NCBI GenBank assembly: GCA_963922205.1
Contig: CAWUHX010000172.1
Span: 711,539 to 775,538, forward strand
DNA from: Romanomermis culicivorax
Taxonomy: Eukaryota; Nematoda; Enoplea; Mermithida; Mermithidae
DNA length: 64,000 nucleotides
Reading direction: 5' to 3'
The notes beneath the pieces were generated by a model that was given only the letters and a program-made list of their open reading frames with translations, was not told where the DNA came from and searched no databases. Below, piece after piece: positions 2,555 through 59,735 of the stretch; the first letter of the stretch is position 1; the number at the start of each line of letters is the position of its first letter. The position numbers were made by a program, and so were the translations under genes.

Positions 2555-3925
2555 AATGGATGCTATAGTCCGTTCATTTTTGAATGAGCCTCGCAAAACA
2601 AGAATATCCAAACAAATCCGTACGCATGTGATGATCCAGTCAGCGTGTCAACATTTTCTTTTTCCAATTTGTAGCTAGGGGTCAATCAGATGGCCGCGCA
2701 CGCAGTTTCTTTATATTTTCATGAGCATATATTCCTTCGAGGCTCATTTGGAAAATACGGAGTATAGATTTGACCAACGGTTGTGTGGAAGTGAAATTAA
2801 CGATTTGTTTAGATAATCTCAATTCCACATTGAGTTACAGTGATTCTGATTTGGATGCGTGGTACGCCAGTCCCTGATATCTTGGATTGGATACAAGCTC
2901 AATTATTCTTTGACTCATTAGCTTCAACAAAATATTTGATTTTCTCAGGACCAAAAATGTACGCTTGAGCGATAAACAACTCTTGTGGCACTTATGAGCC
3001 TCAAGCTTTTCAACACATACGGGTTGATAACAAGCGTTTTCTAAATTCTACACCGCATCTTGGACAATAAAAAGTAGAAAGAATTGTTTTTTTGAAAACA
3101 ATAGCGCAACAAATCGTCATTAAGTTATCCAAATTTCATGAAGTCTTTAGTTCGGACGAATCTCAATTAATTGCATCAAAATAAAAGTCAGTACCTACAG
3201 CAAAAGATATTGGCAGAATATTTACTAGTACTCAAGCTAAACTGACTCCACAAACTTTCAATCTTCATTGTGTATAAAACATGCGAAATGATCAGATTGA
3301 TCTATTGAACTCTTTTGGCATTCAATCCCACTTGTATTTTATCTTATTGCTCTACATACCCTAAGGATGTAATCTATTGGGCTCATAAAAGCGGGATGAG
3401 CAGGCTTTACGAGTATAAGTGATGGGTATCTTCGTGTATTTATATTCTCGCGGGTGTTTTCTTGGGTATTGTACGTATGGATTGTAAATCAATCCCGGAC
3501 TGTTGCTTCTTGAGGTTGATCAGCAAATTCAAAAATCCGCAAAACTTTTGACTTCCGCACTAAAGCGTCGTGATTGTATGAGACTGTAAAAATCACGATA
3601 AGTACAACTGTAAATCTCGCTGATCAACGCTCGAACATCCGGTCGTATTGTTGTTTCGACTGCAGCTTTCTGACAGTTTTTTGTATATTGCGAATTCGCC
3701 TATTGATCTGAAGCAATAATAAAAATTTTTATGAATACAGACGATAAATCTGGGATCATAAGCCTTACAGGTACTTACAAGCAAAGCGGGCACCAAGAGC
3801 AACAAGCCAGTGCTCAAATGACACCTTGAATTTTTTTCTCGATATAGGTAGTTAATTCCTGTAGGTACTTAATTCCTGTATTCATTATTTCATGCAGTGG
3901 TCAATTTCGTTAGTAAATGGACTTT
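2555..3925. other. 3' flank of the kinase; no gene recognised
   Basis: AT-rich sequence with many short open frames and no recognisable protein. A minus-strand open frame near 3593-3817 has a hydrophobic start and a possible 70-base intron (GTAAGT to TTGCTTCAG), but exon phases and codon use do not settle on one protein. Confidence 0.4.
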
Positions 3926-4185
3926 CTTTTCTTTTCTTTTCTTTTCTTTTCTTTTCTTTTCTTTTCTTTTCTTTTCTTTTCTTTTCTTTTCTTTTCTTTT
4001 CTTTTCTTTTCTTTTCTTTTCTTTTCTTTTCTTTTCTTTTCTTTTCTTTTCTTTTCTTTTCTTTTCTTTTCTTTTCTTTTCTTTTCTTTTCTTTTCTTTT
4101 CTTTTCTTTTCTTTTCTTTTCTTTTCTTTTCTTTTCTTTTCTTTTCTTTTCTTTTCTTTTCTTTTCTTTTCTTTTCTTTTCTTTT
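3926..4185. repeat. (CTTTT)52 microsatellite
   Basis: Fifty-two uninterrupted copies of the pentamer CTTTT (260 bp), with near-perfect edges. The perfection implies recent expansion or strong homogenisation. One strand is pure pyrimidine, so the tract could form triplex structures. All long open frames in it are repeat artefacts. Confidence 0.98.
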
Positions 4186-15448: not shown

Positions 15449-17591
15449 TCACTTCAGGAGCGACTTTTGTTGGTCTTTCTGACTATTCTTCTCGATATTG
15501 TACATGAAGGAGGCGGCGATAACGATCGTTGCGCCCAATATGAAATAGCTATAAAATGAGAATGAAAACTATATTAAACTAAATAAAAATAAAAAAACTC
15601 CGCGACGGAAGAAATGTGAAGATTTTCTACTACTTACTGTTCTGCAAAAAGTTGCATGTCAAGTTAAGATTATTATTCTTTTGGTTTTCGCTGCGACTCA
15701 TTTCAAAAATCACGAACTATATGACGAACATATTTAAAAATTTCAGAATAGGCTATTTTCCCACACTATCCTATTTGTGACAGGATTTTCAAGGTTATTG
15801 AACTTTTCCATCTCCGAAATTGGACAATCCGAATAAAGTAGATTTACAATAAGTTTTTCTCTGTAAAGAAACAACTTACAATGAAGGCTCGAAGTCGCCC
15901 AACAAGAAATAAGACAGAATACTCGACAGAATGATCGACAGCGACGTTGCGAAGCCTTTCAAAATATTGTCGGCGTATTTAACAACTAATCCAATAATCA
16001 AACCGCCACACGCCTAGAAAGAAAATGATATAAACGTGATTATGAATCGTACATGTAATTGGGAGATGAAGTGTCATAAGACCCCAGAAATTGTCCGCCA
16101 TATGGCACGCCTTCAAGATTTGCCAATCACACGGCTGAAATGGGCCAGCCATGGGAACCGATATGTCAATTTTTTATAATAAATTGGTTATTTTTCATGA
16201 AAAACCCGTTAAAAATGTCAATTTTTCGTCGCTTCGCGCCATAAATAGATATTTACGGACGAGCGCCTGCGTTGTACGAATTCCATGCCCCCTTAGAATT
16301 ATTGGAAATCGATTCCCCTAGATCTGAAAGCTCCATTACATGAATATTATGAATTGTGCCTTTAGTATTAAACAAATTACTTGCAGAACTATGAGGAACC
16401 ATACTAAAGCGTTGTAACCTTGGAAAAATCCGTTCGCTTTAATAAGCTCGAAATCGGAAAAGAAAACGGCGCCAAAGCCGAACCATATGCTGAAGAACGC
16501 TGAATAGGGCAATAATTACGGGCGCCAGCGTTGCAAGAATTTTACAATAAAATGAAGACAATGGATAGGTAAGAAAAGCTAGAATTTAACTAACCTAATT
16601 GTAAATTTCTCATCCACACCGAGGTATTCGTAGTTTTTAGAATCTTTTCGAAATAAACACCAGAAAACCCGCTCGACAAACACGAAAATACTATGCACGT
16701 AAAACCAATCGTTTTATCGTAAGCGGTCAAAATGTTCGGTTTGTCGTTCTGACCGCTAGGCATCTGAAAGAGATGAGAATGGTTCGGCACGTAAAACATT
16801 TCTAAAGCTAGAATAAACGTAAATCACGATTCCGGTTGTCCACCAGAAACTAAGAAAACGTATTCTCCTAAAAATATGTCAATATTTTTTGCATAATGCA
16901 GATATAATTTTCTCAAATTTTCGTTTTTTTTTCAAGTTTGGAACGAAAATTTGAACAAAATTTTGGATTTTTGAACTTTGGAAAAACTGATAGTCGGTCG
17001 CTAACCTGAACGAAGGCGACGCCTATCGTAAGTAGAAAAAGTGATAACCATTTAATACCGTCCAATTTCTTTCCCAATAAGATGACGGAGAACATAGCCG
17101 TCGTCAATATTTTCATTTGGTAGGTGACCTGAAATGATTTACAGGCAACGAAGAAAGATAACATGCAAAAAACGATTATACTTGATACGTCGCGGCGTCT
17201 AAGTGGGATAAGGCTAGGAATAGTAAATTGTTTTGGACGACGTAAAGCACGGCCGGTACAGCTACTTTAAGGCTTTCGTATGGTTTCTTTATAGCTTCAT
17301 TATCTATGGCTCTGACGGTATGTCTCAGAGACATTTCTAGAAGATAATCTCTTTGGTTTCAGTCATGAACAGCAAATACGACTTACTATTTTCTTTGTAT
17401 AAAACGGCGAGGCACGTGATAATTTTCACTACTTCGGACAAAACGATGGCAGTTGATGATAAATATCTAGGACCGTCGACTTTGGCGGTCCTCGAATAAC
17501 GCAAAGTCAATATTAATACCGTCGTCTGCGTCATCAATAGGAACAAATTTAAGTATTTGTAATAAGCTTTCGAAGACGTGGAAGCTCCCAT
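15449..17591 (-). CDS. SLC35A3-like UDP-GlcNAc/UDP-galactose transporter, seven exons
   Basis: Exons on the minus strand are 17591-17387, 17336-17182, 17128-17006, 16763-16595, 16499-16381, 16013-15880 and 15548-15449. They join in phase to 334 residues, close to the usual 320-350 of the family. Such proteins are Golgi/ER antiporters that exchange nucleotide sugars for UMP to supply glycosylation. Family hallmarks appear in order: [72 protein letters not shown], and [29 protein letters not shown] and NGFFQGYN favour the SLC35A3 branch. The start is placed at the Met before [15 protein letters not shown]. The frame is open 53 codons further upstream, but that segment is not family-like. All introns are GT-AG. 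Repeat D sits in intron 5. Exact substrate is inferred. Confidence 0.93.
16090..16245 (+). repeat. Dispersed repeat D, copy 2
   Basis: Matches 10920-11110 in the same orientation, ending in the same 'aaaaatgtcaatttttcg' and 'cttcgcgcc' blocks. It lies within intron 5 of the transporter gene. Confidence 0.55.
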
Positions 17592-18045
17592 TGTTCTATA
17601 CTCGCAAGTTACAATGGCTAATTCTGTTAAACGGATAACGAAATAATAGGTAGGTACAATAAACGGAGTACCGTAAGGTTGGGTAACGTTATAAATTCTA
17701 ATTACGTAACGACAGTTGGCAAAACTAGTAGAGACATAAGTGCATATCAAATGAATCAGGCTAATAAAGGGTGTGCTGATCAGGCTAATAAAGGGTAGTG
17801 TGCTGATGTTACCAGCTAGAGTGTGCCATCAATCAGTTAGAAGAAGACTAAAAAAATCAGCAAGAAACTATTTTCCATAAACTTGGGCAATAATGAAATT
17901 TTATCATTTTCAAGCTAAAAACAAACAACAAGAATCGAAAATCAGACATTCCACTAAAATTTTCAATCCTAGCAGCAAGAACTCTTGCAGTTGAGTAGAG
18001 GGCAAAAATTACTTTATTTACGAAATCGTATCATCACTTTCGAAC

Positions 18046-45634: not shown

Positions 45635-47421
45635 AAGTCCAGTAGTGTGGGAAGGACCCACCTACAGTTAGTCGATATTTTCAGTTTTGTAGCAGATCGT
45701 CAGAAAGTTGGGTTGTTCTATAGTTTTGTATGTTTGTTCCTTTTCACCGAATTCTGAATAAATAGAAAACCCAGAAGGGAATTGAGCTCATCCGTTCCCA
45801 TTCTTTGTCAGGGTCTCGCGTTCCAGGGTCGAAAATACAAAATAACCCTGACACTGATTTGTGTCACTTTTCTATTTGGAAGCATTTTATAAAAAACAGA
45901 CTGTAAATTTTTATTGAATGTTTATAAGAAAGTTTTTTTTCAATAATTTTTTATTTATTTTTTTTATCCAATTAGCTCTCTTGCACTTCCCTTCTTAGTT
46001 TAAATCGCGCCCAGAACTTCGATGGCTTCCATCGGATTTGATCTATATCCAGGAAATGACGATTTTATTTACTCGATTTTTTATGTCATCATCATTTAAA
46101 TCGTCCAGAAAAAACAACATCCATTCTTCGACTACAAAACCAACTACGCAATCGCAAAAAACATAATCGGCTTTTTGAACCTGGGGTGAGGCAAGATTGA
46201 AAATTCCGATTATCATAATCGCCAAATGATAACAGCTTCAATCGGCTGACGAGCTTACCGACTGTTTTAATCCTGGATTGAAATAATCGGCCGACGAGCT
46301 TACCAAAAAAATTTAATCCTGAATTATGAGCGGGGGCACCAATATTGTAGGTTAGGATGAGCACTCAACAGGCAAAGAACAAAACGCTCATACCACAGCA
46401 AAAGAAGTTTCTGAGAAGAAAGCTCGATGAAGGACTTTGTCTCAAACAAGAGTTTGACCCTGAAATGATATTCAGGCTGGTGCACAAAGAAGAAAGTTTC
46501 CAAACATAAACTAACAGTGCAACGAGTTGCAGGCTTCTGATCGTTGGAAGCAAGTCGTCTTTATGAGGACCAACGAGTCTACTACTATCATGCTGAAGCA
46601 AACGATCTATGAAGAAGATGAAGCAGAAGCTATGAAATATCCCAAGCTATGACCCATACTTGAACTAGTTTATTAGAAAATGCCCCGATGGGGCAGAAAA
46701 AAGGAGAATATACTTGCTTCGACAGTTGCCATGGTAGAAAAAGAAGTGGACTAGACTTTTGAGAACTTGGGTCAAAGTTGGAAAAAATTCACTTTCTTTA
46801 TGTAATTGGATTTTCATTCTTTCTCAAAAAAAAATTTCCATGTCTGTGAAAAAGTATATTCTGCAGCATCGTGCATTTTGTCCTTCAACTGGCATCAACT
46901 ACAGTAAAATTTTTCTATATGAAAATTATATGCACCTGACTTCAAGTGTAAAGAAATGGTAAACCGATAGCATTCTAACTTCCGACCAATTCAAAACTCC
47001 TGCCTCTCACACTTGCTGAAAAATAGTGAGGGAGGCATATTATAGTCATTTTCAGAACGATAAAGGAACCTGAGGTTCATTGCACTAACCCAACATGAGG
47101 ATAATCTCAACATCGGGATTAAATAGATGATCCTGTGTTTAAGCTATTCACAATGTCCAAATTATTTTCTTCCAATGCACAAATCATACTCACTTCAGGA
47201 TTAACTAAAACTGAGGGTTAAGTTCGAGTTTGGGAATCACAGAAATTTTCTATTTATTATGTGAGAATGTCACTTGATTCCTTTTGTTGACACCAAATTC
47301 AGTGGAATGTTTAACACCATTGGAAGCAAACATGTGTGAGAGGAGACACAGGGGTGTTGAGAGTGGCCAAAGCAGCCACCTCAACTACGAATTGTTGCAA
47401 AAAGAGAGCGCCTTTCCCACT

Positions 47422-47494
47422 GCTCGGTTGGCTCAGTTGGTTAGAGCGTGCGGACGGTAGCCGCAAGGTCCTGGGTTCAAGTCCCAGACCGAGC
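47422..47494 (+). tRNA. tRNA-like gene, anticodon GGT (Thr) with unusual C33
   Basis: A 73-nt cloverleaf is complete: acceptor GCTCGGT pairs with ACCGAGC, the D arm GCTC/GAGC, the anticodon arm TGCGG/CCGCA with loop ACGGTAG, and the T arm CTGGG/CCCAG with loop TTCAAGT. Box A-like (TGGCTCAGTTGG) and box B (GGTTCAAGTCC) promoters are intact, and a TTTT terminator follows nearby. Reading positions 34-36 as GGT gives threonine, but position 33 is C instead of the near-universal T. It sits in a transposon-like unit, so it may be a tRNA-derived SINE head and not a decoding tRNA. Confidence 0.6.
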
Positions 47495-47650
47495 CTAACT
47501 TTTACTGAAGCCCCGAGTAGGGGGAAGAGGTTGCCTCAACACTGGTGGCCCTTGACGGTCCGTCAAACTCAACGGCGGAGGGATGTTGAGAGTGGCCAAA
47601 GCAGCCACCTCAACTACGAATTGTTGCAAAAAGAGAGCGCCTCTCCCGCT

Positions 47651-47723
47651 GCTCGGTTGACTCAGTTGGTTAGAGCCTGCAGACGGTAGCCGCAAGGTCC
47701 TGGGTTCAAGTCCCAGACTGAGC
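47651..47723 (+). pseudogene. tRNA-like copy 2, degenerate
   Basis: Same 73-nt layout as the copy 229 bp upstream. The anticodon stem has an A:C mismatch (TGCAG against CCGCA), the acceptor has a G:T pair (GCTCGGT/ACTGAGC), and box A begins TGACTC. Box B is intact. It is probably a decaying tRNA-derived repeat. Confidence 0.6.
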
Positions 47724-48175
47724 CTAACTTTTACTGAAGCCCCGAGTAGTGGGAAGAGGTTTCCTCAACAGGGGTACAAATTTCCACAAGGGTTTTGAAA
47801 CTGGAAAATTTGTTATGCAAAAAATTTTTTGGTCAACTTTTTTTTGAATTTTTTGTCTCACAAAATGCTAAAACACCAAGGTCCACGCCTGTACTCTCCT
47901 AAAAATTTCAGAGATGCACATACTTGGTTGGAAAGTGTGTTGATGCACTCAGCTGCAGAATATACTTCTTCACAGACATGGAAAATTTTTTTAGAGAAAG
48001 AATGAAAATCCAATATAAAGAAAGTGAATTTTTTCCAACTTTGACCCAAGTTCTCAAAAGTCTAGTCCACTTCTTTTTCTACCATGGCAACTGTCGAAGC
48101 AAGTATATTCTCCTTTTTTCTGCCCCATCGGGGAATTTTCTAATAAACTAGTTCAGCTCTTTTTAGTGGGCCTCA

Positions 48176-48181
48176 ACCATG
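48176..48181. repeat. Polinton target-site duplication, left (accatg)
   Basis: The six bases accatg immediately precede the left TIR and are repeated exactly at 58841-58846. A 6-bp duplication is the Polinton norm. Confidence 0.95.
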
Positions 48182-49214
48182 AGTAGTAAGGCCGGCCCGT
48201 ATAGGTCGTACGCTTAAGGATACTCCTATCGTTTGTGTACGACGTATAATTTGTCACTTTTTTCCGATTTACAGGTCGTACAGTAAACATATACGGTTAA
48301 TTTCTTTGTCGATTTATAGGTCGTACAGTAAACATATAGGTCGATTTATAGGTCGCACGGTTAAAAATGTATGTTCTAGAGTTACCGTAATAGTAGAATT
48401 ACGGTAATTTTTCGATTATGGTAATAGTGGAATTGGGGTAATAGGTGTGTTACTGTAGATGAAAAAGGAAAATCGATGATGAACGGAAAATGGAAAATGA
48501 AAATATATGCGGAACAAAAATGGACATACAGTATACAAGTACGACACAAAAAGTAAGGCAAAAAATCGATCTGGAAAAAACTGGAAATACAGTGTCCGTG
48601 TAGTGCACAAAGGTGAGAAAGGTAAGGTAAACAAAACACCAAAATTGGATCTGGAAAAAGTGGACGTACGGTGCATATAGTGTACAAAGGAAAAAAGGTG
48701 AGGTAACAAAACCAAAATCGATTTAGAAAAAGTGAACAAGGGAAAAGAGCACACCTAGGGGGCATAGAGAAAGAACATGCAGAAAAGATTATACATAGAT
48801 CTGAAAGAGATGGTGTAGTGGACAAAGGAAAAAGAGCATGCCTAGTGGAAATAAAGAGAAGACCTACAGGAAAAATGTTATTGATCTAAGAAGAGAACAT
48901 TAGACAGCAGTGAAGAAAGCACCTGTGCTTGATAAAAGAAAAATGCTACTAAATGACTTTTCAAAAATCTAATGTGTTGTTTGCTTATATTACAAAATAA
49001 TCTTATCTAACCCATGACCCCTGACTACTGTAAGCTGTCTAGAAAAAAGAAAAAGGCCCAAGAAGGTAATGTATGAAAAACAAAAATCGATCTAAAGAGA
49101 ACATGTAGTGGACAAAAAAAGAGCATATGTAGTGGACAAAATGAAAAGACGCCCATAAATTATTGTCATTTCATGGAGAACATGTACTGGCCAGTATCAA
49201 AAATAACGAGTAAT
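48182..49214 (+). repeat. Polinton left TIR
   Basis: About 1,033 bp matching 57765-58840 in reverse complement with small differences. Near the tip are three subterminal units around 'ggtcgtacagtaaacatat'. Long open frames in the TIR mirror each other in both copies and look non-coding. Confidence 0.92.
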
Positions 49215-49308
49215 CTGAAAAAGGATAGTACCAGCAACAAATAAAGCTGTAAATGTTTTTTATTATAAAAAAATGAAAATGTACATGATATATAAATATA
49301 TAACGTAT

Positions 49309-50707
49309 TTAAATACTATAATCTGTAAAGGTTTCACGATTTTTATCAATCATTACGAGAGAGTCAAATTCTGCGTATATAAGTGCTTCAATACCCCCAT
49401 CTGGTATATCCTCTCCAAAATTCATCTGTAAACTGGTGGTTCCTTCACGTACGAGTTCCCAAAAATTACCATCCATACCCCAAGGAGTCAAATCAAAAAC
49501 AAAAACCGTGTTATGCGTTGTAAAAGAATTTCGAGTAATTTCATTACCCTTGTTATCTGTACCAATTCCTACACCCTCAAATAACTGTATAAAAGTGCGC
49601 AAATATTTGTTTTCTTTAAAATTTAACATATACGGCGTTGTAGGTAATGTTGTAGTACCACTTGTTATTTTAATTTCGTTTAATCCGAAATGCTTAAAAT
49701 TGAAGGGGCTTTGATTATAATCACCCCTAGCAGCCGAACCATCAACGAGCGCCACAACGAGATGACGAGGTAAAGGACCTGTGAACAATGAGTTCAGAGG
49801 GGCTGAGCGACGACTAGTTGTTATGTATAGACTTGTAACATGACATCGACGAATAGGGTATTTTGCAGCTGTATTTTGTAACATGGATTCAATAGCTAGA
49901 TTGATATTATCCGCAACTTCAACTTTTTTAATAAATAAAGACATGCTTTTAACCTCGATTTTATAAGCTTCGTTGTCAGTAGATATAAATTTTTGCAAGC
50001 AAAAATCATCTCTATGTCTGTATAAATCAATTTTCAAAGTACATTGATTCAATAGAAAACGTTCTTGCATAAATAGATCGGCATGTATAGGAGCCATTAA
50101 TTCAACAACTGCACTGTTTTTTAACATCTGAACTCTTTCCAAAGCACCCTTGTTTTTCTTTATATCAAGAACATCGCCATTTTCAAAAGCATAACCAGCA
50201 GCTGCAACATGTGTTGACTTAGCATCACGACCATAGTTCAATTCCGTTTCCAAATAAGATCTGTAAGCGTATCTATCCCCACTAAAATGTTAAAATGTTA
50301 AAATTAAAAAAACATGAACATACATTTAATTATAAAACTTACCTGTCAGATATTAATTTTCCATTTAAGTACATCTTGATCTGTTTAAAAAATGTTTTGC
50401 CGATCAAATTAATTGGTGCTACAACATTTCCAGTAGGGTTATTGTTGGCATCCGATGTTAAAACGCAAGCACCACCATTAGCTTTCGTAATTCGAATAGT
50501 AAAATATATAAAATTTTTTGATAAATCTAGCATATATGAATCTGGTGAAACAACAAACTCGTACGGTCCCTCATTAGTACAAGGATTCTGGAGTTGTATT
50601 TCAGACCAAAAACTTCTAGGAATAGCTACTTGAGTTGGAGGTACAGTAAATAAATCTAATTCCGTTTTACTACTAGGAGATGATGCAGCATCAATAAATT
50701 TACTCAT
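49309..50707 (-). CDS. Polinton major capsid protein (double jelly-roll type), two exons
   Basis: Exon 1 (50707-50343) begins MSKFIDAASS and exon 2 (50281-49309) continues after a 61-base intron (GTAAGT to TTTTAG). The join in phase 2 gives 445 residues. The sequence follows the Polinton/adintovirus capsid pattern: an N-terminal 'F.IP.....YvDL..t.iyf...I..' block (here ISK-less FVVSPDSYMLDLSKNFIYF), a jelly-roll core with RHLVVALVDGSAARGDYNQS, then PFNFKHFGLNEIKI, and a C-terminal DLTPWGMDGNFWELVREGTT. This protein should form the trimeric capsomers of icosahedral virions. The start overlaps the stop of the upstream gene by four bases (ATGA). It is the last gene of the array. Confidence 0.88.
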
Positions 50708-51225
50708 TTCGAATAGATATCCTTAAAACCGACTATTCTACGTGGAGTCTTTTTTAAGAATGAGGAATGTTGTTTTAGCTGCTTATGTTTATGTTGCTTT
50801 ATTTGACCATTATTCAACATTTTATTGCTCTTCAAATGTATCGTAGAAGTTACATGTTTGCGCTTTCCTAGACCTTTTCCTTTCTGAATCCGATCACCTG
50901 TCTCGTGTAATAAATTGCTTGCTGCATTTCGCCCATGATCTGTAACACTTTCTTTAAAAGAACGTCCTTCTACCATATCACCTGCAATTTTGGAACCTGC
51001 AGCAAGTGCGTGTTTTCCTGCAGACTTCAACAAGGGCATAGCTAGTCGCCATAAACTCTTGAAAAAATTACCCAATCCAGCTCCCTGGTGTCTATAATAA
51101 ATTGGGTATGCTGCTCTAAAACCTTCCAATGCACCACCACCTAATTGAAATTGACTATCTTGTATGCTCTGTTGATAAATTTTGATCCAGTAATCAACGG
51201 TTTCAGGGATAAATACGGTATGCAT
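50704..51225 (-). CDS. Polinton pVI-like capsid-associated protein
   Basis: 173 residues from an ATG. The N-terminal half has FQLGGGALEGFRAA, then GAGLGNFFKSLWRLAMPLLK, then GSKIAGDMVEGRSFKESV, an amphipathic Gly/Ala-rich region. This resembles the internal capsid protein found next to the major capsid gene in Polintons and compared with adenovirus pVI. The C-terminal half is Lys/His-rich (GKGLGKRKH, KQHKHKQLKQH) and could bind nucleic acid. The stop overlaps the major capsid ATG by four bases. Role inferred from position and composition. Confidence 0.75.
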   Translation of the reverse strand: MHTVFIPETVDYWIKIYQQSIQDSQFQLGGGALEGFRAAYPIYYRHQGAGLGNFFKSLWRLAMPLLKSAGKHALAAGSKIAGDMVEGRSFKESVTDHGRNAASNLLHETGDRIQKGKGLGKRKHVTSTIHLKSNKMLNNGQIKQHKHKQLKQHSSFLKKTPRRIVGFKDIYSK

Positions 51226-51381
51226 ATTTTGCTTTGAAAATCAAAAGGAACAACTAAATGAACTAATTAATTAATTAAGAGCGTTTGCGAAAATTCAACC
51301 TGACGACAACGTGTCCAAATGCAAATGAATGAATGAGTAAATAAAAATTTGATACTATGATTATAGGAATAAAGGAGTACG

Positions 51382-52278
51382 TCACTGAAAATGTAATTTA
51401 ACTATAACATTCCCAAACTGAAAGGGTATAAGCTCATTCATACTGTTTTTTATATTAATCTCGAGTACTGTAATTTCTTTCAATTGAATGGGTATATAGT
51501 GAGGTGTTTCATATAATCGACTCACATTATCTTTGTATTTTCCCTGAACATTTACTATACGTAAAAGCGGTGCTAAAGTATTTCCAACAATCTGATTTTC
51601 AATAATATTAGAGTAAACATAAAAATTCTGTAAATCATTCAAATTTGGTGGTTGAATGCCTAACATGTTTAAATGATTAGTTCCAGGCTCGGCAAGAAAA
51701 ACAGCTTTGGATGGTGGAATATGTGTGTTAGAATTTTTTGGAGGTTTCTCTCCAACAGTATATAAGTTAATATTCACAGCTCTGTTTAAAAAATCATCAG
51801 CAGTTGCATAGGCCTCAGTATTGGTAGAGCTAAATCCGAGAAGCTCCATTAACCGTTTGCTTATATCGATTTTACGTAAGATTGTACCACTTTTTATTTT
51901 CAAATTAACTAATCCTCGTCCATGTTCATCGTATGAAAACATGATTTCCATGTTAGTTCCGGCAATAGCTGCTCCAACTTTTGCATTCAACTCTTCAATT
52001 AATTCAGCTATGGTAAAGTAATGTTTTTCAAAAACTATTACTTTAATTTTTTTGACCTTATTTCCGACACCATCCGTAATTAACGTTATTACATTATCTC
52101 CACCATGATTGGTAAATGTAGCCCAACTATAGGGGTATATTATTTCACTTAGCCCTACCTCCCAGCTTCCATCTAGTTTTAAACGGTAAGGTAGATGGGC
52201 TGAAAAATCAGAGGGCTTGTTTCCATTTTTGCTATTACTAGGTAATGTGATATAAAATTGATCTTCAAAGGTTGTCAT
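51382..52278 (-). CDS. Polinton penton-like minor capsid protein
   Basis: 298 residues. The start FYITLPSNSKNG, then FSAHLPYRLKLDGSWEVGLS and EIIYPYSW, is the signature of the Polinton single-jelly-roll minor capsid protein that should occupy capsid vertices. The C-terminus closes with IPIQLKEITVLEINIKN, then FQFGNVIVKLHF, also family-like. It overlaps the end of the upstream two-TM gene by 14 bases, and the next gene begins 156 bases downstream. No frameshift is visible. Confidence 0.87.
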   Translation of the reverse strand: MTTFEDQFYITLPSNSKNGNKPSDFSAHLPYRLKLDGSWEVGLSEIIYPYSWATFTNHGGDNVITLITDGVGNKVKKIKVIVFEKHYFTIAELIEELNAKVGAAIAGTNMEIMFSYDEHGRGLVNLKIKSGTILRKIDISKRLMELLGFSSTNTEAYATADDFLNRAVNINLYTVGEKPPKNSNTHIPPSKAVFLAEPGTNHLNMLGIQPPNLNDLQNFYVYSNIIENQIVGNTLAPLLRIVNVQGKYKDNVSRLYETPHYIPIQLKEITVLEINIKNSMNELIPFQFGNVIVKLHFQ

Positions 52279-52573
52279 TATTTATAATGTTGTTTGCTGT
52301 TGCTATAGGTACGGTCTTCAATGAATTAGATGACTGTAATACTGTCGGTACAGGGCTAGGTAATAAATATCCTATACAAGCGCACAAAAGACCAACCCAC
52401 AATTGTGTATTATTATTGTAGAGAGATAAATTTATTATAGCTGTAATGACTACAATGTATATTAGTATGACCTGACTGAAGAAAACCACTTCGTTTCGAG
52501 GTAGACGTTTTCCAAAAAACTCCCAAAGACTGATGCGAGATGTTTCCGAATGCGTACTATTACTACTGTCCAT
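52265..52573 (-). CDS. Small two-TM Polinton protein
   Basis: 102 residues. After a polar Ser-rich N-terminus comes FGKRLPRNEVVFFSQVILIY followed by a hydrophobic run to ITAIINLSLY (about residues 29-52), and a second hydrophobic segment LWVGLLCACIGYLLPSP (about 58-75). A 'PR.E..FF.Q...IY..I..s..NLS' segment and the 'GYLLPSP' ending recur in small membrane proteins next to penton genes of Polintons. The function is unknown; a virion membrane or assembly role is possible. It overlaps the penton gene start. Confidence 0.72.
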   Translation of the reverse strand: MDSSNSTHSETSRISLWEFFGKRLPRNEVVFFSQVILIYIVVITAIINLSLYNNNTQLWVGLLCACIGYLLPSPVPTVLQSSNSLKTVPIATANNIINNDNL

Positions 52574-52885
52574 TTCAAAATAAAAAAATTTTTATTTAAC
52601 AATTAACTAGTCAATCATAAATTTATAAAAAGGCGGAGCTAGTAAAGTAACCAATAAAATTATACAAAAATATAAAGGAGGCGGAGCTATCAAAGTGAAG
52701 TAAAATTTATATATAAATACATATAGAAGGAGTTAACTTTTTACAAGCGTGTACATAATTTATTTCGCAAGTGACCTTTTACAGAAAATTTACAATGAAA
52801 AAACTTACAAATCAATTTATCATTATAAACTAAATTTGTGTTACTGAAACTTTTAAACATTTTATACATAGGAACATGTCGCACT

Positions 52886-53230
52886 TTATAATACAAAAAA
52901 TAAAGTATATATACCACAAACCCTACTATTAAAATTTTGTAAATGTTTCTTATTTGTATATATTATTAAAGTATTTTTGTTAATATAATTTATAAAAGCA
53001 GGAATAACTGGTGGTAAGCCATAAGAATCAAAATAATATACAGAGTTAGCATTATCAAAATACATAGCTATCCAATGACTTCCTTTTTGAAAAGATGTAT
53101 CGGTGTTTGCAATTAAAGCCGCGGGTCTTTTAACTATCTTCGGTAGAGTATCGCAAGCAAAAACTCCTAAAAAATTTTGTGATAATAGCTCATCTTGTTG
53201 AGCATAATATGTCAATACAAAGTTGTTCAT
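52886..53230 (-). CDS. Adenain-like (C5/Ulp1-type) cysteine protease, prematurely ended
   Basis: 114 residues. The catalytic layout of adenoviral-type maturation proteases is present: His52 in SHWIAMYF, Asp68 in YYFDSYG, a candidate oxyanion Gln99, and Cys105 in [11 protein letters not shown]. In virions such enzymes cleave capsid precursors. The frame stops nine residues after Cys105, whereas relatives usually continue for tens of residues. An open stretch of about 45 codons follows directly in another frame (about 52750-52885). This suggests a small deletion in a TA-rich tract, and the gene may be inactivated. Its first 41 bases overlap the integrase gene end. Confidence 0.85.
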
Positions 53231-54329
53231 CGTAATCGTCGTCGTCGTCGTCGTTTTGTATATCCTTTTCTAAAATCCAACTGTTGAATTTTTCAGGATA
53301 ACCCCACCACTTCACAAGTACTCTATTCTGACCATCTGGTAATCGTTTAGTCTTCAAAACCTTTTCAATTTTGTATTCTTTGATATTAGGATTAAAATCG
53401 ATTTTCTGTAGTTCTTTTTCATAAAAACGTCCTTCTATATCTTCGCCTTCCAGATCTTGAATTGTATAAAGTATATGATTTCGGGTCTTCACAATATGTT
53501 TTACTTTGAAAACTTCTTCACTCCATTGAGGTAAATAACCTTTGTCAAATACACCTCTATGTTTACTAATTCGCACGTAATCTCCTATATCAATCTTAGA
53601 CTTTCTAGTGTATAATCTTTCAGGGTAGAGTCTTTGCCATATAATTTTTTCGTTAGAATAATCTACATTAATAGGTTTTTCCTTAATAGATCTATGAACA
53701 GAGTGATTGTAGTTGGAAACAACTGCGGGTAAAATATCAATCCATTTATAAGTGGTAAACTCTGTAAAATATTTAAATAATTTAGTTTTTAAAGTTCTAT
53801 TAAACCGTTCCACTATTGAACATTTAATGTCTTCGTTTTGAGAAGTAAAAAAATGTATATCGTTAGTTTTCAATAATTTTTGGAAATCTTTGTTGACAAA
53901 TTCTTTTCCTTTATCGCTGCGCACTCTCCAAGGGATTCGACCTCTTTTCAAAATATTTTGAAAAGCATCACATACATTCTTTGCATGTTTTGATTTCAAT
54001 GGTTCAACCCATGCGTATTTACTTAATACATCTATACATGTAAACATAAATTTATATCCATCGTTGAAATCTGCTAAAGAAGACATATCTGCCAAATCAA
54101 TTTCCCATTGTTGATCCATAGCTGTAACATAAATACGGTTACGTGAAAACTTTTTGTTGACTTGCTTATGTAATGTATAACTATCTTGTTTTGAGAGCCA
54201 ATCTTCAACATTTTTACGTGTAATTGTTTTATTGTGTTTTCTAGCTTCCACATATAATTTTTCAATGCTAGAAAAAGCTGTAGGGTTTCCGTGTAAATTT
54301 TTGTACAATTTTGAAAGTAGTCTATCCAT
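53190..54329 (-). CDS. Polinton retroviral-type integrase (DDE) with chromodomain
   Basis: 379 residues from an ATG. The core has Asp78 (QWEIDLADM), Asp139 (RSDKGKEF) and Glu174 (SIVERFNR), giving the D,D(35)E spacing. N-terminal helices (about 1-65) precede it, followed by an SH3-like part ([19 protein letters not shown]). A chromodomain ([20 protein letters not shown] then GYPEKFNSW, about 318-350) lies near the C-terminus, then a poly-Asp run. It should insert element DNA into chromatin with a 6-bp duplication, as seen at the ends. It appears intact. It begins 4 bases after the upstream gene stop and overlaps the protease start. Confidence 0.95.
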
Positions 54330-54333
54330 TGTT

Positions 54334-55167
54334 CTAGTATAAAGGGGTATATCGTCTAAGTGTTCTAGCTTTTCTCCGTATCTTCTTTTCTGTCGAGTTT
54401 CCTTTACTCAAGATTGTATTGTCTTTGATATCTTCTTCGTCACTTGAAAATACACCAACACCTTTCACGAGGGATTTATTCAACTGTTTGAGACTACCGT
54501 TTGCCTGATTATCTGATTCTTCAGCAGCCGTTTGGTAGGAGAGTTTCCGAGGTAGAGTGAATAACATTCTGCGCAAAGGATTTCCTATAGCCTCTAAGGG
54601 TACATTATGTTTTCTCAAAGCATTAGCAAATTTGCCTACTCCAAGCGGTTGCGTAATTTTTGAACGTTTACATGACAAATCATGTAATAAATCAATAATA
54701 TGGGAGCCTTCAATTAATTTCCCATCAATTAATATTTCTCCTTGCTTATTAACATGTATACTAGGGTTACGTCTCACATGTTCCAATAATAATGATGCAG
54801 AACGTTTAAATTGTTTAGGGATTCCACTGAGTAATTTCTCATCATTCAACCAATCTTTTTCCTCAACCTTTAAATTAATGCTATCACTTTCATCATTAGT
54901 ATTTTCTTTTAAAATTATGGTAGCAGGTTGGGCGTTTTCGTGTTCAAAAGTTAAATATTGTGACAATAATTGAGAGTACATTTTGTATTGTTCTTCGGGT
55001 GTTAATGTATTATCCTTCATAATGCGCTCTAATTCGTTACGATACATATCAACTTGTCTAGCTATACCCGTCTTTTCATTTGCACTCGACGAAGAAGAAG
55101 CCTGAGAGTTATTCAACTTATTCAGAACCTCATGAGGGATAAGAGCAAATTTACTAGCAAATTTCAT
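54334..55167 (-). CDS. Conserved Polinton PX-like protein
   Basis: 277 residues starting MKFASKFALIPHEVL; a TTG-initiated frame extends upstream, but the ATG at 55167 is preferred. A coiled-coil-like Ser/Glu region is followed by a conserved block: KRSASLLLEHVRRNPSIHVN, then GEILIDGKLIEGSHIIDLLH and VGKFANALRKHNVPLEAIGNP. This block recurs in Polintons and adintoviruses next to the integrase, and its function is unknown. The tail is basic (KKIRRKARTLRRY), suggesting nucleic-acid binding. The gene starts one base after the upstream stop and ends four bases before the integrase. Confidence 0.72.
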   Translation of the reverse strand: MKFASKFALIPHEVLNKLNNSQASSSSSANEKTGIARQVDMYRNELERIMKDNTLTPEEQYKMYSQLLSQYLTFEHENAQPATIILKENTNDESDSINLKVEEKDWLNDEKLLSGIPKQFKRSASLLLEHVRRNPSIHVNKQGEILIDGKLIEGSHIIDLLHDLSCKRSKITQPLGVGKFANALRKHNVPLEAIGNPLRRMLFTLPRKLSYQTAAEESDNQANGSLKQLNKSLVKGVGVFSSDEEDIKDNTILSKGNSTEKKIRRKARTLRRYTPLY

Positions 55168-55168
55168 T

Positions 55169-55522
55169 CTATAATAATTTCTCTGTAACAAAAGCTGCTA
55201 GTGTAGATAATAGAGCCGGTAGTACTAGAGGTAAAAATGCTCCACCACTTTGAACTATTCTTGTACGTTTATTATGTAAGTCTTTTTTCTTGTTTTTTTC
55301 GTGTCTTGTAGCTAAAGCTCTAAGCAATAATTTATGCTTTGCCAATTTCTTTTTTAACTTTGAATTAATAGGGATATTACCATTCAATATGTTCAGACAA
55401 ATTTCGCATATACAACAGATCAAATCAGGGGAAGAATGTTGAAGAAAAACACGTCTTTGAACACAATTTGAATTTTTCAACACATTGAGCTCGTGAATAT
55501 ATTTCTTTAATCTAGAAGCCAT
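55169..55522 (-). CDS. Conserved small Polinton protein, basic with hydrophobic C-terminus
   Basis: 117 residues. A Lys-rich N-terminus leads into ICEICLNILNGNIPINSKLK, then a basic segment LLRALATRHEKNKKKDLHNK, then QSGGAFLPLVLPALLSTLAA. The NIL.GNIP...kkkL...k..LR.L pattern ending in a GG-hydrophobic tail is common in Polintons upstream of the PX gene. The function is unknown. The hydrophobic C-terminus might anchor in a membrane or resemble cleaved core peptides. Confidence 0.68.
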   Translation of the reverse strand: MASRLKKYIHELNVLKNSNCVQRRVFLQHSSPDLICCICEICLNILNGNIPINSKLKKKLAKHKLLLRALATRHEKNKKKDLHNKRTRIVQSGGAFLPLVLPALLSTLAAFVTEKLL

Positions 55523-55604
55523 ACAAAACAGACCGTACAGTACATAAAAATATTACAATAATGACCAAATGTTAAATGAACATTGAAACAGTTAATGTAT
55601 TACA

Positions 55605-56069
55605 TTAGGATAGTAATGAAGCTTCATTTTGTATAATAATATTCAACTCTTCCCGTCTAGAAAAAGCACACAATATATTCATATTCATAAAAAACAGTTT
55701 ATGTGTTGTATCTAGCTTTAAAAAAAGATCTTCTACAAAAATAGAGCGAGGTTCCATCATATCCAATTCTATTAGTAATAATTTGGCAAAACACCAAAAT
55801 TGTGTAACTTTTTTACGTCCCATAGGTAAACCAACTTCGCGACGTAAATGATTGCACGCCTTAGCTATGTCTTTGTAAAAAATCTTGGCTTCAGGTGAGA
55901 AACGAGTCCAAAACAAATCAGCCATCTCACGTTTCTGTTTGTTGGTTAGTATTTTACCTCAAATAAAAAATATTATAGATTAATAACTAGGTGAATAAAT
56001 AGATAAAAAATTTTTACCTTTTACTTTACTTTGCACCATTCTGACAAAAACTTCAAATGCGGCGGACAT
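55605..56069 (-). CDS. Unrecognised Polinton gene, two exons
   Basis: Exon 1 (56069-56018) encodes MSAAFEVFVRMVQSKVK, and exon 2 (55957-55605) continues after a 60-base intron (GTAAAA to TTTGAG, an atypical acceptor). The join gives 134 residues. It is mostly helical with aromatic residues (DLFWTRFSPEAKIFYKDIAK, VTQFWCFAKLLLIELDM) and has no recognisable domain. Position within the operon-like array supports a real element gene. If the intron is not used, the protein would start at the ATG at 55925. Confidence 0.55.
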
Positions 56070-56137
56070 TGTAATTGGCACAGAACAAACAAACAAACAA
56101 ATTATAGAAAAACGACCAACCTCTTCCAAAATTTCGA

Positions 56138-56494
56138 CTAAACTGATGTACTGTCAAATATTTTTTTCTGACTACGTAATAAAGCTATCGTATCAATATA
56201 TCCTAATCTAGTTCCCTTGATGTACAAGTTTTGAAATTTACTGGTACGGCTACAGCAAGAAAATACAGTAGGATTGAAAATATATATTTTGAAACACATT
56301 CGTAATTGCATAAATTGACCATCATTCTGAGGACATTGTAAAATTTTTTCTACAAAATGTAGTAAGGGTGTTATATGCAATTTATAATTTTCCCATAATA
56401 ATTCCCGATCTGTACCATTATCTGTATTTGGTATCGTAAAATCTGTAACATTTACAGGTTCTCCATTTTCATAAATTTGAAAAGGATATTGTAA
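56138..56494 (-). CDS. Unrecognised Polinton gene, 3' exon
   Basis: A 118-residue frame opens right after a TTTTATTGTATAG acceptor in phase 0 and stays open to the stop. It includes NGEPVNVTDFTIPNTDNGTD, LQCPQNDGQFMQLRMCFK and KNLYIKGTRLGYIDTIALLR-like sequence. No ATG lies near the 5' end, so a short first exon is expected between 56495 and 56690. A candidate ATG begins MIRHFYRKLFT, but its donor phase does not fit. Function unknown. Confidence 0.45.
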   Translation of the reverse strand, partial: LQYPFQIYENGEPVNVTDFTIPNTDNGTDRELLWENYKLHITPLLHFVEKILQCPQNDGQFMQLRMCFKIYIFNPTVFSCCSRTSKFQNLYIKGTRLGYIDTIALLRSQKKIFDSTSV

Positions 56495-56690
56495 CTATAC
56501 AATAAAAACAAATATAAAAAGAATTACGATAAGGCTATTAAGAAAAGTGTATTTACTGTATAACATATCAATAAATAATAAGATCCAACTAACTTGTAAA
56601 AAGTTTTCTGTAAAAATGACGAATCATTTAGGTGTATATAAAATCATATGATTATTGTTAGGAAATATATTAGATCTAAGTCAATATTTT

Positions 56691-57269
56691 TCAGGACATG
56701 TCTGTGTAAGATCTATTAATAAATAGCCATATGGTATACTCATCCTCATACGCTTCTATAAAATAATTTGAAGTAGTTGGGAAAATCTGTCGAGCCAGTG
56801 TGCGCACTTGTAATCTATCGCTAGGGTTTTTTAAAAGAACCAAATATTGAGCATTTATTCTACTTGTACGCATTCCATCAAAAAAGGCATTTTGAACTAT
56901 ATGTATAATTGATAGATTCCAGTGATGTGATCCTTTAGTAAAAAGTTGAGTTAAACGTTTATCATTCTTCATCTCTTGCATCATATCATCCATAATTAAT
57001 AGTTTAGGTGTATCTTTACTTTTTTGAAGTTCATCCAAGTCAGGTGAACCTTGAATGAATTCTACGTAAGAACATTTTTGAACTAATTCATCGTAAGCTT
57101 CTTGCCATTCGGAATAACACCAATAAATTTTCACAGGAGCAGGGTGAATCATTTCTTTAGCAAAAATTACAAGTTTTTTAACAAATTGTGTTTTTCCTGA
57201 TTTTGTTGGAGCAGAAACTATGCAGTTAAATGGATGTTTCCATATATAAAACTCATCAGGATCTGACAT
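56691..57269 (-). CDS. Polinton FtsK/HerA (A32-type) genome-packaging ATPase
   Basis: 192 residues from the ATG at 57269; the frame is open a further 15 codons upstream but without ATG. KHPFNCIVSAPTKSGKTQFV holds the Walker A site. The first Gly of GxxxxGKT is Ala here (A20...G25 K26 T27). Walker B is LLIMDDMMQE (Asp94, Asp95), followed by a sensor-like IIHIVQNAFFDGMRTSR. In relatives this motor packages DNA into capsids. The protein is slightly short for the family (usually 200-250), so a 5' exon may be missing. It is the first gene of the array, beginning about 0.5 kb from the end of the right TIR. Confidence 0.88.
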   Translation of the reverse strand: MSDPDEFYIWKHPFNCIVSAPTKSGKTQFVKKLVIFAKEMIHPAPVKIYWCYSEWQEAYDELVQKCSYVEFIQGSPDLDELQKSKDTPKLLIMDDMMQEMKNDKRLTQLFTKGSHHWNLSIIHIVQNAFFDGMRTSRINAQYLVLLKNPSDRLQVRTLARQIFPTTSNYFIEAYEDEYTIWLFINRSYTDMS

Positions 57270-57414
57270 CTTCCAAGAAAAACCAACCACTTTTTTACTT
57301 GGACACTTTTTCAAAATGATTTTATTTCATTGAGATGCTATTTATAATTACCCAAATTTTGATACAGTAAAACACGAATAGTTGGACAAAACAAAATACA
57401 GTGAAGCTAACTTC

Positions 57415-57764
57415 CATGAAACATTAAACATGCATCTTTTTCTTTTTCTACTACATATGCTCTTTTTTCTTTATCCACGACATGTTCTCTTTAGATCCAT
57501 TTTTGTTTTTCATACATTACCTTCTCAGGTCTTTTTTTTCTAGGCAGCTTACAGTAGTCCTGGCTCATGGGTTAAGTAAGATTATTTTGTAATATAAACA
57601 AACAACAGGTTAGATTTTTGAAAAGTCATTCAGTAGTGTTTTTCCTTTGTCAAGTACAGGTGCTTTTTTCACTGCTGGCAAAATGTTCTCTTTTTGGATC
57701 GATAACATTTTTCCTGTAGGTCTTCTCTTTATTTCCACTAGTCATACTCTTTTCCCTTTGGCCC
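57415..57764 (+). repeat. Diverged internal duplication of the right TIR
   Basis: This stretch repeats 57845-58160 in the same orientation: 'ctacatatgctctttttt', 'gttctctttagatc', 'tgtttttcatacattacctt', 'gattattttgtaatataa' and 'acatttttcctgtaggtctt'. It is more diverged than the TIRs are from each other, so it is an older tandem duplication inside the element. Confidence 0.8.
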
Positions 57765-58840
57765 ATTACTCATTATTTTTGATACTGTCAGTACATGTTC
57801 TCCACGAAATGGCAATAATTTATGGGCCTCTTTTCATTTTGTCCACTACATATGCTCTTTTTTTGTCCACTACATGTTCTCTTTAGATCGATTTTTGTTT
57901 TTCATACATTACCTTCTTAGGCCTTTTTCTTTTTTTTAGACAGCTTACAGTAGTCAGGGGTCATGGGTTAGATAAGATTATTTTGTAATATAAGCAAACA
58001 ACACATTAGATTTTTGAAAAGTCATTTAGTAGCGTTTTTCTTTTATCAAGCACAGGTGCTTTCTTCACTGCTGTCTAATGTTCTCTTCTTAGATCAATAA
58101 CATTTTTCCTGTAGGTCTTCTCTTTATTTCCACTAGGCATGCTCTTTTTCCTTTGTCCACTACACCATCTCTTTCAGATCTATGTATAATCTTTTCTGCA
58201 TGTTCTTTCTCTATGCCCCCTAGGTGTGCTCTTTTCCCTTGTTCACTTTTTCTAAATTGATTTTGGTTTTGTTACCTCACCTTTTTTCCTTTGTACACTA
58301 TATGCACCATACGTCCACTTTTTCCAGATCCAATTTTGGTGTTTTGTTTACCTTACCTTTCTCACCTTTGTGCACTACACGGACACTGTATTTCCAGTTT
58401 TTTCCAGATCGATTTTTTGCCTTACTTTTTGTGTCGTACTTGTATACTGTATGTCCATTTTTGTTCCGCATATATTTTCATTTTCCATTTTCCGTTCATC
58501 ATCGATTTTCCTTTTTCATCTACAGTAACACACCTATTACCCCAATTCCACTATTACCATAATCGAAAAATTACCGTAATTCTACTATTACGGTAACTCT
58601 AGAACATACATTTTTAACCGTGCGACCTATAAATCGACCTATATGTTTACTGTACGACCTATAAATCGACAAAGAAATTAACCGTATATGTTTACTGTAC
58701 GACCTGTAAATCCGACAAAAGCCAATCGTGTATGTTTACTGTACGACCTATAAATCGGAAAAAAGTGACAAATTATAGGTCGTACACAAAAGATAGGAGT
58801 ATCCTTAAGCGTACGACCTATACGGGCCGGCCTTACTACT
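57765..58840 (-). repeat. Polinton right TIR
   Basis: Reverse complement of 48182-49214. It is slightly longer because its tip has an additional subterminal 'gtacgacctataaatcg' unit (four units at about 58620-58800). It ends 'ccttactact'. Confidence 0.92.
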
Positions 58841-58846
58841 ACCATG
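58841..58846. repeat. Polinton target-site duplication, right (accatg)
   Basis: Exact copy of 48176-48181, directly after the right TIR. Confidence 0.95.
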
Positions 58847-58969: not shown

Positions 58970-59735
58970 CGCATAGTACTTAAAAAACGGTGTAAAGATA
59001 CTGAAAGGTGACCATATCTATTGAATTCCTCATAGTTTAGAATCCTTCAACCCAAAAAATCGCAGAAATACCTTTGTTTACACAAATGACTTTTTTCGTG
59101 TAAACTGACTCCGTCCATTGAATTTCCCATGGTCAGAAACATCTTCCCTCGAAAATCGCAGAAATACATTTGTTTACACTCAATATCAATTGATGTGTAA
59201 AGTGATCACTTTCATTATATTCCCAGTGGTCGAAAACCCCTCCAACAAAAAAACTCACGAAAACAGGCTTGGTTAAATCCGGAATAATTTTTTTGTGTAA
59301 AGTGACACATCCATTGAATTCCCCGTAGTCGAAAACAAAATCACGAAAATACGCTTGTTTACACCTGCGATAGTTTTTTTTTGTAAGATGATCGCATTCA
59401 TTGAATTCTCTGTGATCGAAAACCCCGCCCACCGGGAAATCACGAAAATACGTTTGTTTACACACGGGATAATTTTTGGTGTAAAGTGATCACATTCATT
59501 GAATTCCTCGTCGTCGAAAATCCCCTTCACAAGAAAATTAAGGCAGTACGCTTGTTTACATCATGGATAATTTATTTGTGTAAAGTGAGGACGTCTATTG
59601 AATTCCCCGCAGTCGAAAACTCCCTCCACTGAAAAATCACAGAAATACGCTTGTTTGCACCCGGGATAATTTTTCGTGTAAAGTGACCGCGTCCATCCAA
59701 TTCCCAATGGTCGAAAACCCTTGCAGCCCAAAAAT
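58970..59735. repeat. ~98-bp minisatellite, about seven to eight units
   Basis: Units of about 93-99 bp repeat 'gaaatacgcttgtttacac', 'gataatttttgtgtaaagtg', 'tccattgaattcc' and 'gtcgaaaaccc'. The word tgttta occurs at about 59075, 59171, 59356, 59455, 59553 and 59652. The units differ by 10-25 percent by eye. Minus-strand frames through the array are repeat translations. It begins about 125 bp beyond the Polinton. Confidence 0.88.

What the first reader, a model, noticed from the sequence alone, without database searches (positions are those of the whole stretch)
48182..58840. Polinton with intact ends and capsid, protease, ATPase and integrase genes but no DNA polymerase B
The TIRs, the exact 6-bp duplication and a colinear eleven-gene array show a complete insertion. 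Self-synthesising Polintons are defined by protein-primed PolB, yet there is no space or similarity for one. A 10.7-kb particle-plus-integrase module could be a non-autonomous lineage or a parasite of a PolB-bearing relative. The virion genes appear under constraint: all capsid frames are open.
Basis: partly seen in the sequence, partly recalled or inferred. Interest (0 to 1): 0.88.

Follow-up and report, generated by a model that had tools for sequence, protein, structure and literature searches.

The report
Polinton provirus missing its DNA polymerase
A virus-like element sits complete in what is probably a roundworm genome, carrying genes to build a particle and insert its DNA but none recognised to copy that DNA, so it may depend on a relative; whether this is a real lineage or one damaged copy is still open.

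Summary
Window 48182-58840 is one insertion with 1,008/1,052-bp inverted repeats (10 substitutions in 1,008 aligned sites), AGTAGTAAGG ends and a 6-bp duplication, ACCATG. Eleven minus-strand genes span 92% of 49309-57326: a double-jelly-roll capsid protein with a 61-bp intron, packaging-type ATPase, adenovirus-type protease, rve-chromodomain integrase with its D-D-E triad, and seven others. None of 14 ORFs scanned matched a polymerase; the largest gap in the array is 196 bp. Two corrections: the protease frame is cut short, probably by a frameshift, and open frames do not prove constraint, because the insertion looks young (36% of 600 neutral simulations gave no new stop). The host is probably a mermithid nematode near Romanomermis culicivorax: the only 2 of 50 MCP relatives with a species name are from it. 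One (85% over 123 aa) is joined to neighbouring gene Y, so the family has another copy. I favour a non-autonomous Polinton/adintovirus copied by a relative's PolB (0.5). A one-off deletion is the main rival (0.33). The deciding test, a search of the host genome for copies and PolB, did not complete in 21 attempts.

The parts
48176..48181 (.). left target-site duplication ACCATG
48182..49189 (+). left terminal inverted repeat (1,008 bp), starts AGTAGTAAGGCCGGCC
49309..50281 (-). major capsid protein, exon 2 (intron 50282-50342, GTAAGT...TTTTAG)
   Evidence: 50 homologues; junction agrees with continuous homologues
50343..50707 (-). major capsid protein, exon 1 (365 nt; unspliced ORF from this ATG is 122 aa; the two exons add up to 445 codons plus stop)
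50704..51225 (-). 173-aa ORF; minor core/pX-like by recall only
   Evidence: ORF and codon score; no match above cut-off, best Pfam E 0.054
51382..52278 (-). 298-aa ORF; penton/minor capsid candidate by recall only
   Evidence: ORF and codon score; no Pfam or PHROG match, no convincing PDB match (best E 0.49)
52265..52573 (-). 102-aa ORF with a hydrophobic stretch
   Evidence: Pfam best E 0.018, below cut-off; codon score slightly below zero
52886..53230 (-). adenovirus-type maturation protease, cut short after the Cys motif, probably by a frameshift; 52741-52962 in another frame is the likely remainder (inferred; that piece has no protease match)
   Evidence: PF00770 E 5e-7; ASFV S273R E 1.5e-4; remainder: Pfam best E 0.16, unrelated
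53190..54329 (-). rve integrase with C-terminal chromodomain, 379 aa, D78-D139-E174 present
54334..55167 (-). 277-aa ORF W; conserved Polinton gene by recall only
   Evidence: ORF and codon score; no Pfam or PHROG match, no convincing PDB match (best E 0.38)
55169..55522 (-). 117-aa ORF Z
   Evidence: only weak matches, E 0.037 or worse; codon score about zero
55605..56069 (-). gene Y, two exons (56069-56018, 55957-55605; intron GTAAAA...TTTGAG, 60 bp, predicted)
   Evidence: exon 2 is 76% identical over 41 aa to A0A915J9X8_ROMCU
56138..56494 (-). orphan ORF X, no clear start codon; exon of an incompletely resolved gene, or relic
   Evidence: codon score above zero; no homologue; fold pLDDT 38; four candidate first exons, none convincing
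56691..57269 (-). A32/FtsK-type packaging ATPase, 192 aa
   Evidence: Pox_A32 E 6e-5 on the 211-aa stop-to-stop frame
57432..57763 (.). diverged (87%) tandem copy of the inner TIR, between ATPase and right TIR
57789..58840 (-). right terminal inverted repeat (1,052 bp; one extra 44-bp unit in the array near its end)
58841..58846 (.). right target-site duplication ACCATG

Best explanation
It is a young integrated Polinton of the adintovirus type in a nematode, most likely a mermithid near Romanomermis culicivorax, that is non-autonomous for replication. It codes for its own particle proteins, packaging ATPase, protease and integrase, but no protein-primed DNA polymerase. Shown: the integrated form, its recognisable genes, the integrase triad, and the lack of a recognisable PolB or room for one. 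Inferred: the DNA is copied in trans by the polymerase of a PolB-bearing relative that recognises the same kind of ends, and the element's own integrase then reinserts it with a 6-bp target duplication. It is the reverse of an ordinary defective virus, which keeps its origins and loses its coat.
For: Intact TIRs and exact TSD. Gene array without a polymerase-sized gap. Integrase, protease, ATPase and MCP identified. Only 1% divergence between TIR arms, so the element moved recently and was then complete at both ends, if the arms were identical at insertion. The 87% inner-TIR copy beside the ATPase is more diverged than the arms, so this end was probably rearranged before the last jump (inference). 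A second copy in R. culicivorax has gene Y and the same MCP. R. culicivorax is reported to carry 6.5 Mb of Polintons, so helpers are plausible (PMC10879605, passage).
Against: No PolB-bearing helper was seen. No other full copy was seen, so a repeated polB-less layout is unproven. The protease frame is cut short. ORF X has no start and could be a relic. Of the 120 integrase hits listed (of 3,549), 3 name a species and none of these is Romanomermis. Host identity rests on two named MCP relatives.
Confidence: 0.5

Rival explanations
1. A one-off internal deletion: an ordinary PolB-bearing Polinton lost about 3.5-4 kb before or after insertion, and this copy is a dead end.
For: A PolB-bearing insect adintovirus is 14.5 kb with twelve proteins (PMC8363768, passages), about one polymerase gene larger than this 10.7-kb element (gene size recalled). 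ORF X has no start codon or homologue. The protease frame is cut short. The duplicated inner TIR suggests rearrangement at the ATPase end.
Against: No recognisable polB fragment in 14 ORFs. Normal gene spacing except near X and the right TIR. TIR arms only 1% apart, leaving little time for a clean loss after insertion.
Confidence: 0.33
2. PolB-independent life cycle: the integrase moves the element and host polymerases copy it, or ORF X, Y, Z or W is an unrecognised replication protein.
For: Four ORFs (X, Y, Z, W) have no convincing profile match; the best E-value is 0.037. Many protist EVEs lack a detectable polymerase, and an alternate replication mode or an undetected enzyme was suggested (PMC10120064, passages).
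Against: All four frames are 287 aa or shorter stop to stop, small for a polymerase. Long TIRs with arms 99% identical fit end-primed copying (inference).
Confidence: 0.1
3. A segmented system: polB lies on a separate segment with the same ends, so this is one part of a multipartite virus.
For: Precedent: Drosophila Vesanto virus may have up to twelve segments, with PolB homologues on three of them (PMC8363768, passages).
Against: No second segment seen. No call tested for one outside this window.
Confidence: 0.06

Closest known systems
Polintons/Mavericks and adintoviruses of animals
   Same: TIRs, 6-bp TSD, rve integrase with chromodomain, adenovirus-type protease, A32/FtsK ATPase, double-jelly-roll MCP
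   Different: No PolB, which is part of the four-gene core given in PMC3671162 (passages) and of the adintovirus definition in PMC11071296 (section 16); only 10.7 kb. Gene loss in Polintons is in print in the other direction: nine elements without MCP also lacked protease and ATPase (PMC4028283, passages)
Adintovirus-virion genomes lacking PolB and integrase ('meldviruses', PMC11071296, section 16 and a figure legend)
   Same: Adenovirus/adintovirus-class virion genes without PolB
   Different: Those also lack the integrase, and one pictured example has a primase-helicase and tyrosine recombinase; here the rve integrase is kept and no other replicase is recognised
Tlr1 element of Tetrahymena (PMC11071308, passages)
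   Same: Rve integrase without a standard pPolB
   Different: Tlr1 encodes a large pPolB-derived protein with a superfamily 1 helicase; this element has no room for such a protein
Polinton-like viruses and protist EVEs without pPolB or a detectable polymerase (PMC10120064, PMC12747079; passages)
   Same: Capsid-bearing integrated elements without pPolB or a recognised polymerase
   Different: Protist hosts; most PLVs have helicases and often tyrosine recombinases; this element is adintovirus-like and no helicase matched
Defective interfering genomes and non-autonomous transposons (recalled)
   Same: Depend on a relative's enzyme
   Different: They normally lose coat or transposase genes; this one keeps coat and integrase and lacks the replicase

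Membership tests
Polinton/Maverick | long terminal inverted repeats | tested here: met
   1,008/1,052 bp, 10 substitutions in 1,008
Polinton/Maverick | 6-bp target-site duplication | tested here: met
   ACCATG on both sides
Polinton/Maverick | rve integrase | tested here: met
   PF00665 E 5e-13, D78/D139/E174 invariant in 13 sequences
Polinton/Maverick | protein-primed PolB | tested here: not met
   No polymerase match in 14 ORFs; no gap larger than 196 bp in the gene array and 462 bp beside it.
Polinton/Maverick | adenovirus-type protease | tested here: met
   PF00770 E 5e-7, profile positions 1-55 of 179; the ORF is cut short
Polinton/Maverick | A32/FtsK packaging ATPase | tested here: met
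   Pox_A32 E 6e-5, just above the gathering score, 23.0 vs 22.8; no convincing PDB match
Polinton/Maverick | double-jelly-roll MCP | tested here: met
   50 homologues, 2 of them with precomputed PF21738. Model of P0003, 57% identical to window exon 2, pLDDT 86, matches PBCV-1, SGIV, Sputnik and mavirus MCPs, best E 4e-15. Of 3 homologues scanned, P0025 matches DJR-like_dom just under cut-off (26.2 vs 27); P0032 and P0014 match nothing; the window's own exons match nothing above cut-off
Polinton/Maverick | minor capsid (penton) protein | tested here: inconclusive
   298-aa ORF, no Pfam or PHROG match, no convincing PDB match; naming is by recall
Adintovirus | PolB with N-terminal OTU-like domain plus hexon recognisable by BLASTP | tested here: not met
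   Definition from PMC11071296; PolB absent. The hexon part was not compared with a named adintovirus hexon
Adintovirus | integrase with C-terminal chromodomain | tested here: met
   PF00385 E 7e-7
Non-autonomous lineage | several independent insertions with the same polB-less layout | not testable with these tools
   The genome search gave no answer in 21 attempts (first, last)

The most novel reading that the evidence does not exclude
A stable lineage of animal proviruses that builds its own capsid and integrates by itself but takes its DNA polymerase from other Polintons in the same nematode: a virophage-like satellite of a Polinton in an animal, or one segment of a multipartite Polinton.
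Probability: 0.3. Interest if true: 0.8.

Novelty: new variant of a known kind. Interest (0 to 1): 0.45.

Why it matters
Polintons were named self-synthesising because they carry their own polymerase. A mobile copy with particle and integrase genes but no polymerase would show that replication can be shared between elements in one animal genome, and would give a test of whether Polinton ends are recognised in trans. If it is only a deletion, it still shows a very clean loss of PolB.

Tried and rejected
Rejected: PolB hidden in a spliced gene. Gene spans leave no stretch above 196 bp free inside the array and 462 bp beside it, and none of the 14 ORFs scanned matches a polymerase. Rejected: MCP broken. 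What looks like a break at 50282-50342 is a GT-AG intron, and homologues read straight across it. Rejected as proof: 'open frames mean constraint' (0.355 of 600 simulations at 0.5% neutral change gave no new stop in 5,607 bases; at 1% it was 0.14).

Led nowhere: viral contig scans with the MCP and the integrase gave 0 relatives; records of the window's own or near genomes may be left out there. The integrase against 50,697 phage records gave 0. ORF X gave 2 candidates and 0 hits, no PDB match and a useless fold. PHROGs gave nothing firm. PDB sequence searches with the MCP exon, ATPase, MCP profile, penton candidate and W gave nothing convincing. Paper searches: nine were run. Of the three aimed at polB-less or non-autonomous Polintons, one search listed 0 papers, one search listed 8 (seen as a listing only) and one search listed 1, on protist PLVs (passages). 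Papers that I recall and could not read: Jeong et al. 2023 on nematode Polintons (look-up failed; a search for its title words, did not list it), Starrett et al. 2021 on adintoviruses (look-up failed), a 2024 review, and Widen et al. 2023 (not looked up by id; not among the 20 of 53 listed).

Not tested: whether X is a relic of the polymerase's N-terminal part. I suspected this from recalled features only and had no PolB sequence to compare.
Full report
What is there. The element runs from 48182 to 58840. Its arms are 1,008 and 1,052 bp with 10 substitutions in 1,008 aligned sites (7 transitions); the length difference is one extra 44-bp unit of a tandem array near the right end. ACCATG stands directly outside both AGTAGTAAGG ends. 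The 14-base terminus occurs exactly twice in the window; a third site with 3 mismatches is within chance (mean 1.57 in shuffles, 21 of 100 shuffles with 3 or more). Elsewhere in the window there is no TIR match beyond 14-19 bases (E 0.65), and the only element-ORF match is one weak integrase stretch (E 0.10).

Genes, from the right end: ATPase, X, Y, Z, W, integrase, protease, a small hydrophobic ORF, penton candidate, pX candidate, MCP. All are on the minus strand. Their spans, introns and the out-of-frame protease remainder included, cover 92% of 49309-57326; the largest gap inside the array is 196 bp, and 119 and 462 bp separate the array from the TIRs. Codon scores favour the annotated frame over the five other frames for all 12 ORF pieces; seven of these were in the training set, so for them this comparison is partly circular. 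Of the five not in it, X and Y score above zero and the small hydrophobic ORF, protease and Z slightly below. Pfam: Peptidase_C5, rve plus Chromo, Pox_A32. The protease also matches African swine fever virus S273R (E 1.5e-4). Penton, pX, W and Z are names or impressions from recall; no call confirms them.

Capsid. The MCP exon-2 frame has 50 homologues at E 1e-3 or better among 764 candidates. Homologues of about 440 aa read continuously across the place where the window has GTAAGT...TTTTAG, so this is an intron, not damage. Two relatives, P0001 and P0016, begin with ...FFSGDKYAYR, as expected if their frames open just after an intron at the same site (inference). A model of P0003 (57% identical to window exon 2, pLDDT 86, pTM 0.85) matches double-jelly-roll MCPs of PBCV-1, Singapore grouper iridovirus, Sputnik and mavirus. 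The best viral-library E-value is a Cotesia sesamiae bracovirus protein at 26% identity, although its TM-score is only 0.38. By sequence alone neither the exon nor the MCP profile finds a convincing PDB chain.

Integrase. 379 aa; D78, D139 and E174 (D-D-35-E) are invariant across 13 aligned sequences. The best relative is a 58% identical metagenome protein; 3,549 proteins passed E 1e-10 among 4,783 candidates and the best 120 were listed. P0022 (MCP) and P0057 (integrase) both report a 17,693-base contig, perhaps the same larger relative; I could not open that contig.

No polymerase. None of 14 element ORFs scanned matches a polymerase family.

Host. 2 of the 50 MCP relatives carry a species name, both Romanomermis culicivorax: A0A915K0P5 (54%) and A0A915J9X8 (85% over 123 aa); most rows have no name. 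The second joins the start of gene Y (76% over 41 aa) to the MCP in one gene model, so another copy with these two genes exists there. Its extra amino-acid changes look like decay (inference). A long-read paper reports 6.5 Mb of Polintons in that species (PMC10879605, passages only). Of the 120 listed integrase hits 3 name a species, none of them Romanomermis. The species is therefore an inference; another mermithid is possible.

Age and constraint. If the two arms were identical at insertion, 1% divergence means about 0.5% per site since. Simulated neutral change at that level left eight coding stretches (5,607 bases) without a new stop in 36% of 600 runs. Open capsid frames thus do not show constraint after insertion; they show that the copy was intact when it arrived. 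The protease frame ends just after its CG-Y-LF motif. The likely rest lies in another frame, but that 73-aa piece has no protease match of its own, so the frameshift is an inference. It may be a mutation or a long-read error.

Signs of rearrangement. Between right TIR and ATPase lies a tandem copy of the inner TIR at 87% over 337 columns, far more diverged than the arms and so probably older than the insertion. It could mark the place where a polymerase gene once stood; that is a guess. ORF X, next to the ATPase, has a codon score above zero but no start, no homologue and no reliable fold; it could be a gene with an unseen exon or a relic.

Reading. By anatomy this works like a Polinton or adintovirus for particle formation and integration, but it fails the PolB criterion and should not be filed as a self-synthesising Polinton. 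The best reading is a non-autonomous derivative copied in trans (0.5); a one-off deletion is the main rival (0.33). Published relatives of the idea: protist EVEs without a detectable polymerase (PMC10120064, passages); animal virus genomes with adintovirus-class virion genes but neither PolB nor integrase (PMC11071296, section 16); Tlr1, with an rve integrase and a helicase fusion in place of pPolB (PMC11071308, passages); and a possibly segmented PolB virus (PMC8363768, passages). Three full-text searches (listings of 0, 8 and 1 papers) showed no nematode Polinton with integrase and capsid genes but no PolB. The most relevant nematode papers that I recall could not be read here, so this is weak evidence of novelty.

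What would settle it. The copies in the host genome. The genome search was asked 21 times between and never answered.

Noticed in passing
47350-47770: Two tRNA-Thr (GGT) genes in a 229-bp tandem duplication (95% matches) about 400 bp outside the element's left end.
   Followed up: no
57432-57763: Diverged tandem copy (87%) of the inner TIR next to the right TIR, although the two TIR arms differ by only 1%.
   Followed up: partly
50282-50342: MCP intron; two metagenome relatives (P0001, P0016) have frames that open just after the same position, suggesting a shared intron.
   Followed up: partly
56138-56494: Orphan ORF with a coding-like codon score but no start codon or homologue, beside the ATPase.
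   Followed up: partly
59056-59720: Two satellite-like arrays with units of about 96-99 bp just outside the element's right end.
   Followed up: no
16913-17828: Nucleotide-sugar transporter exons (PF04142), minus strand: an ordinary host gene.
   Followed up: no
3923-4185: Perfect array of 52.6 copies of TTTCT.
   Followed up: no
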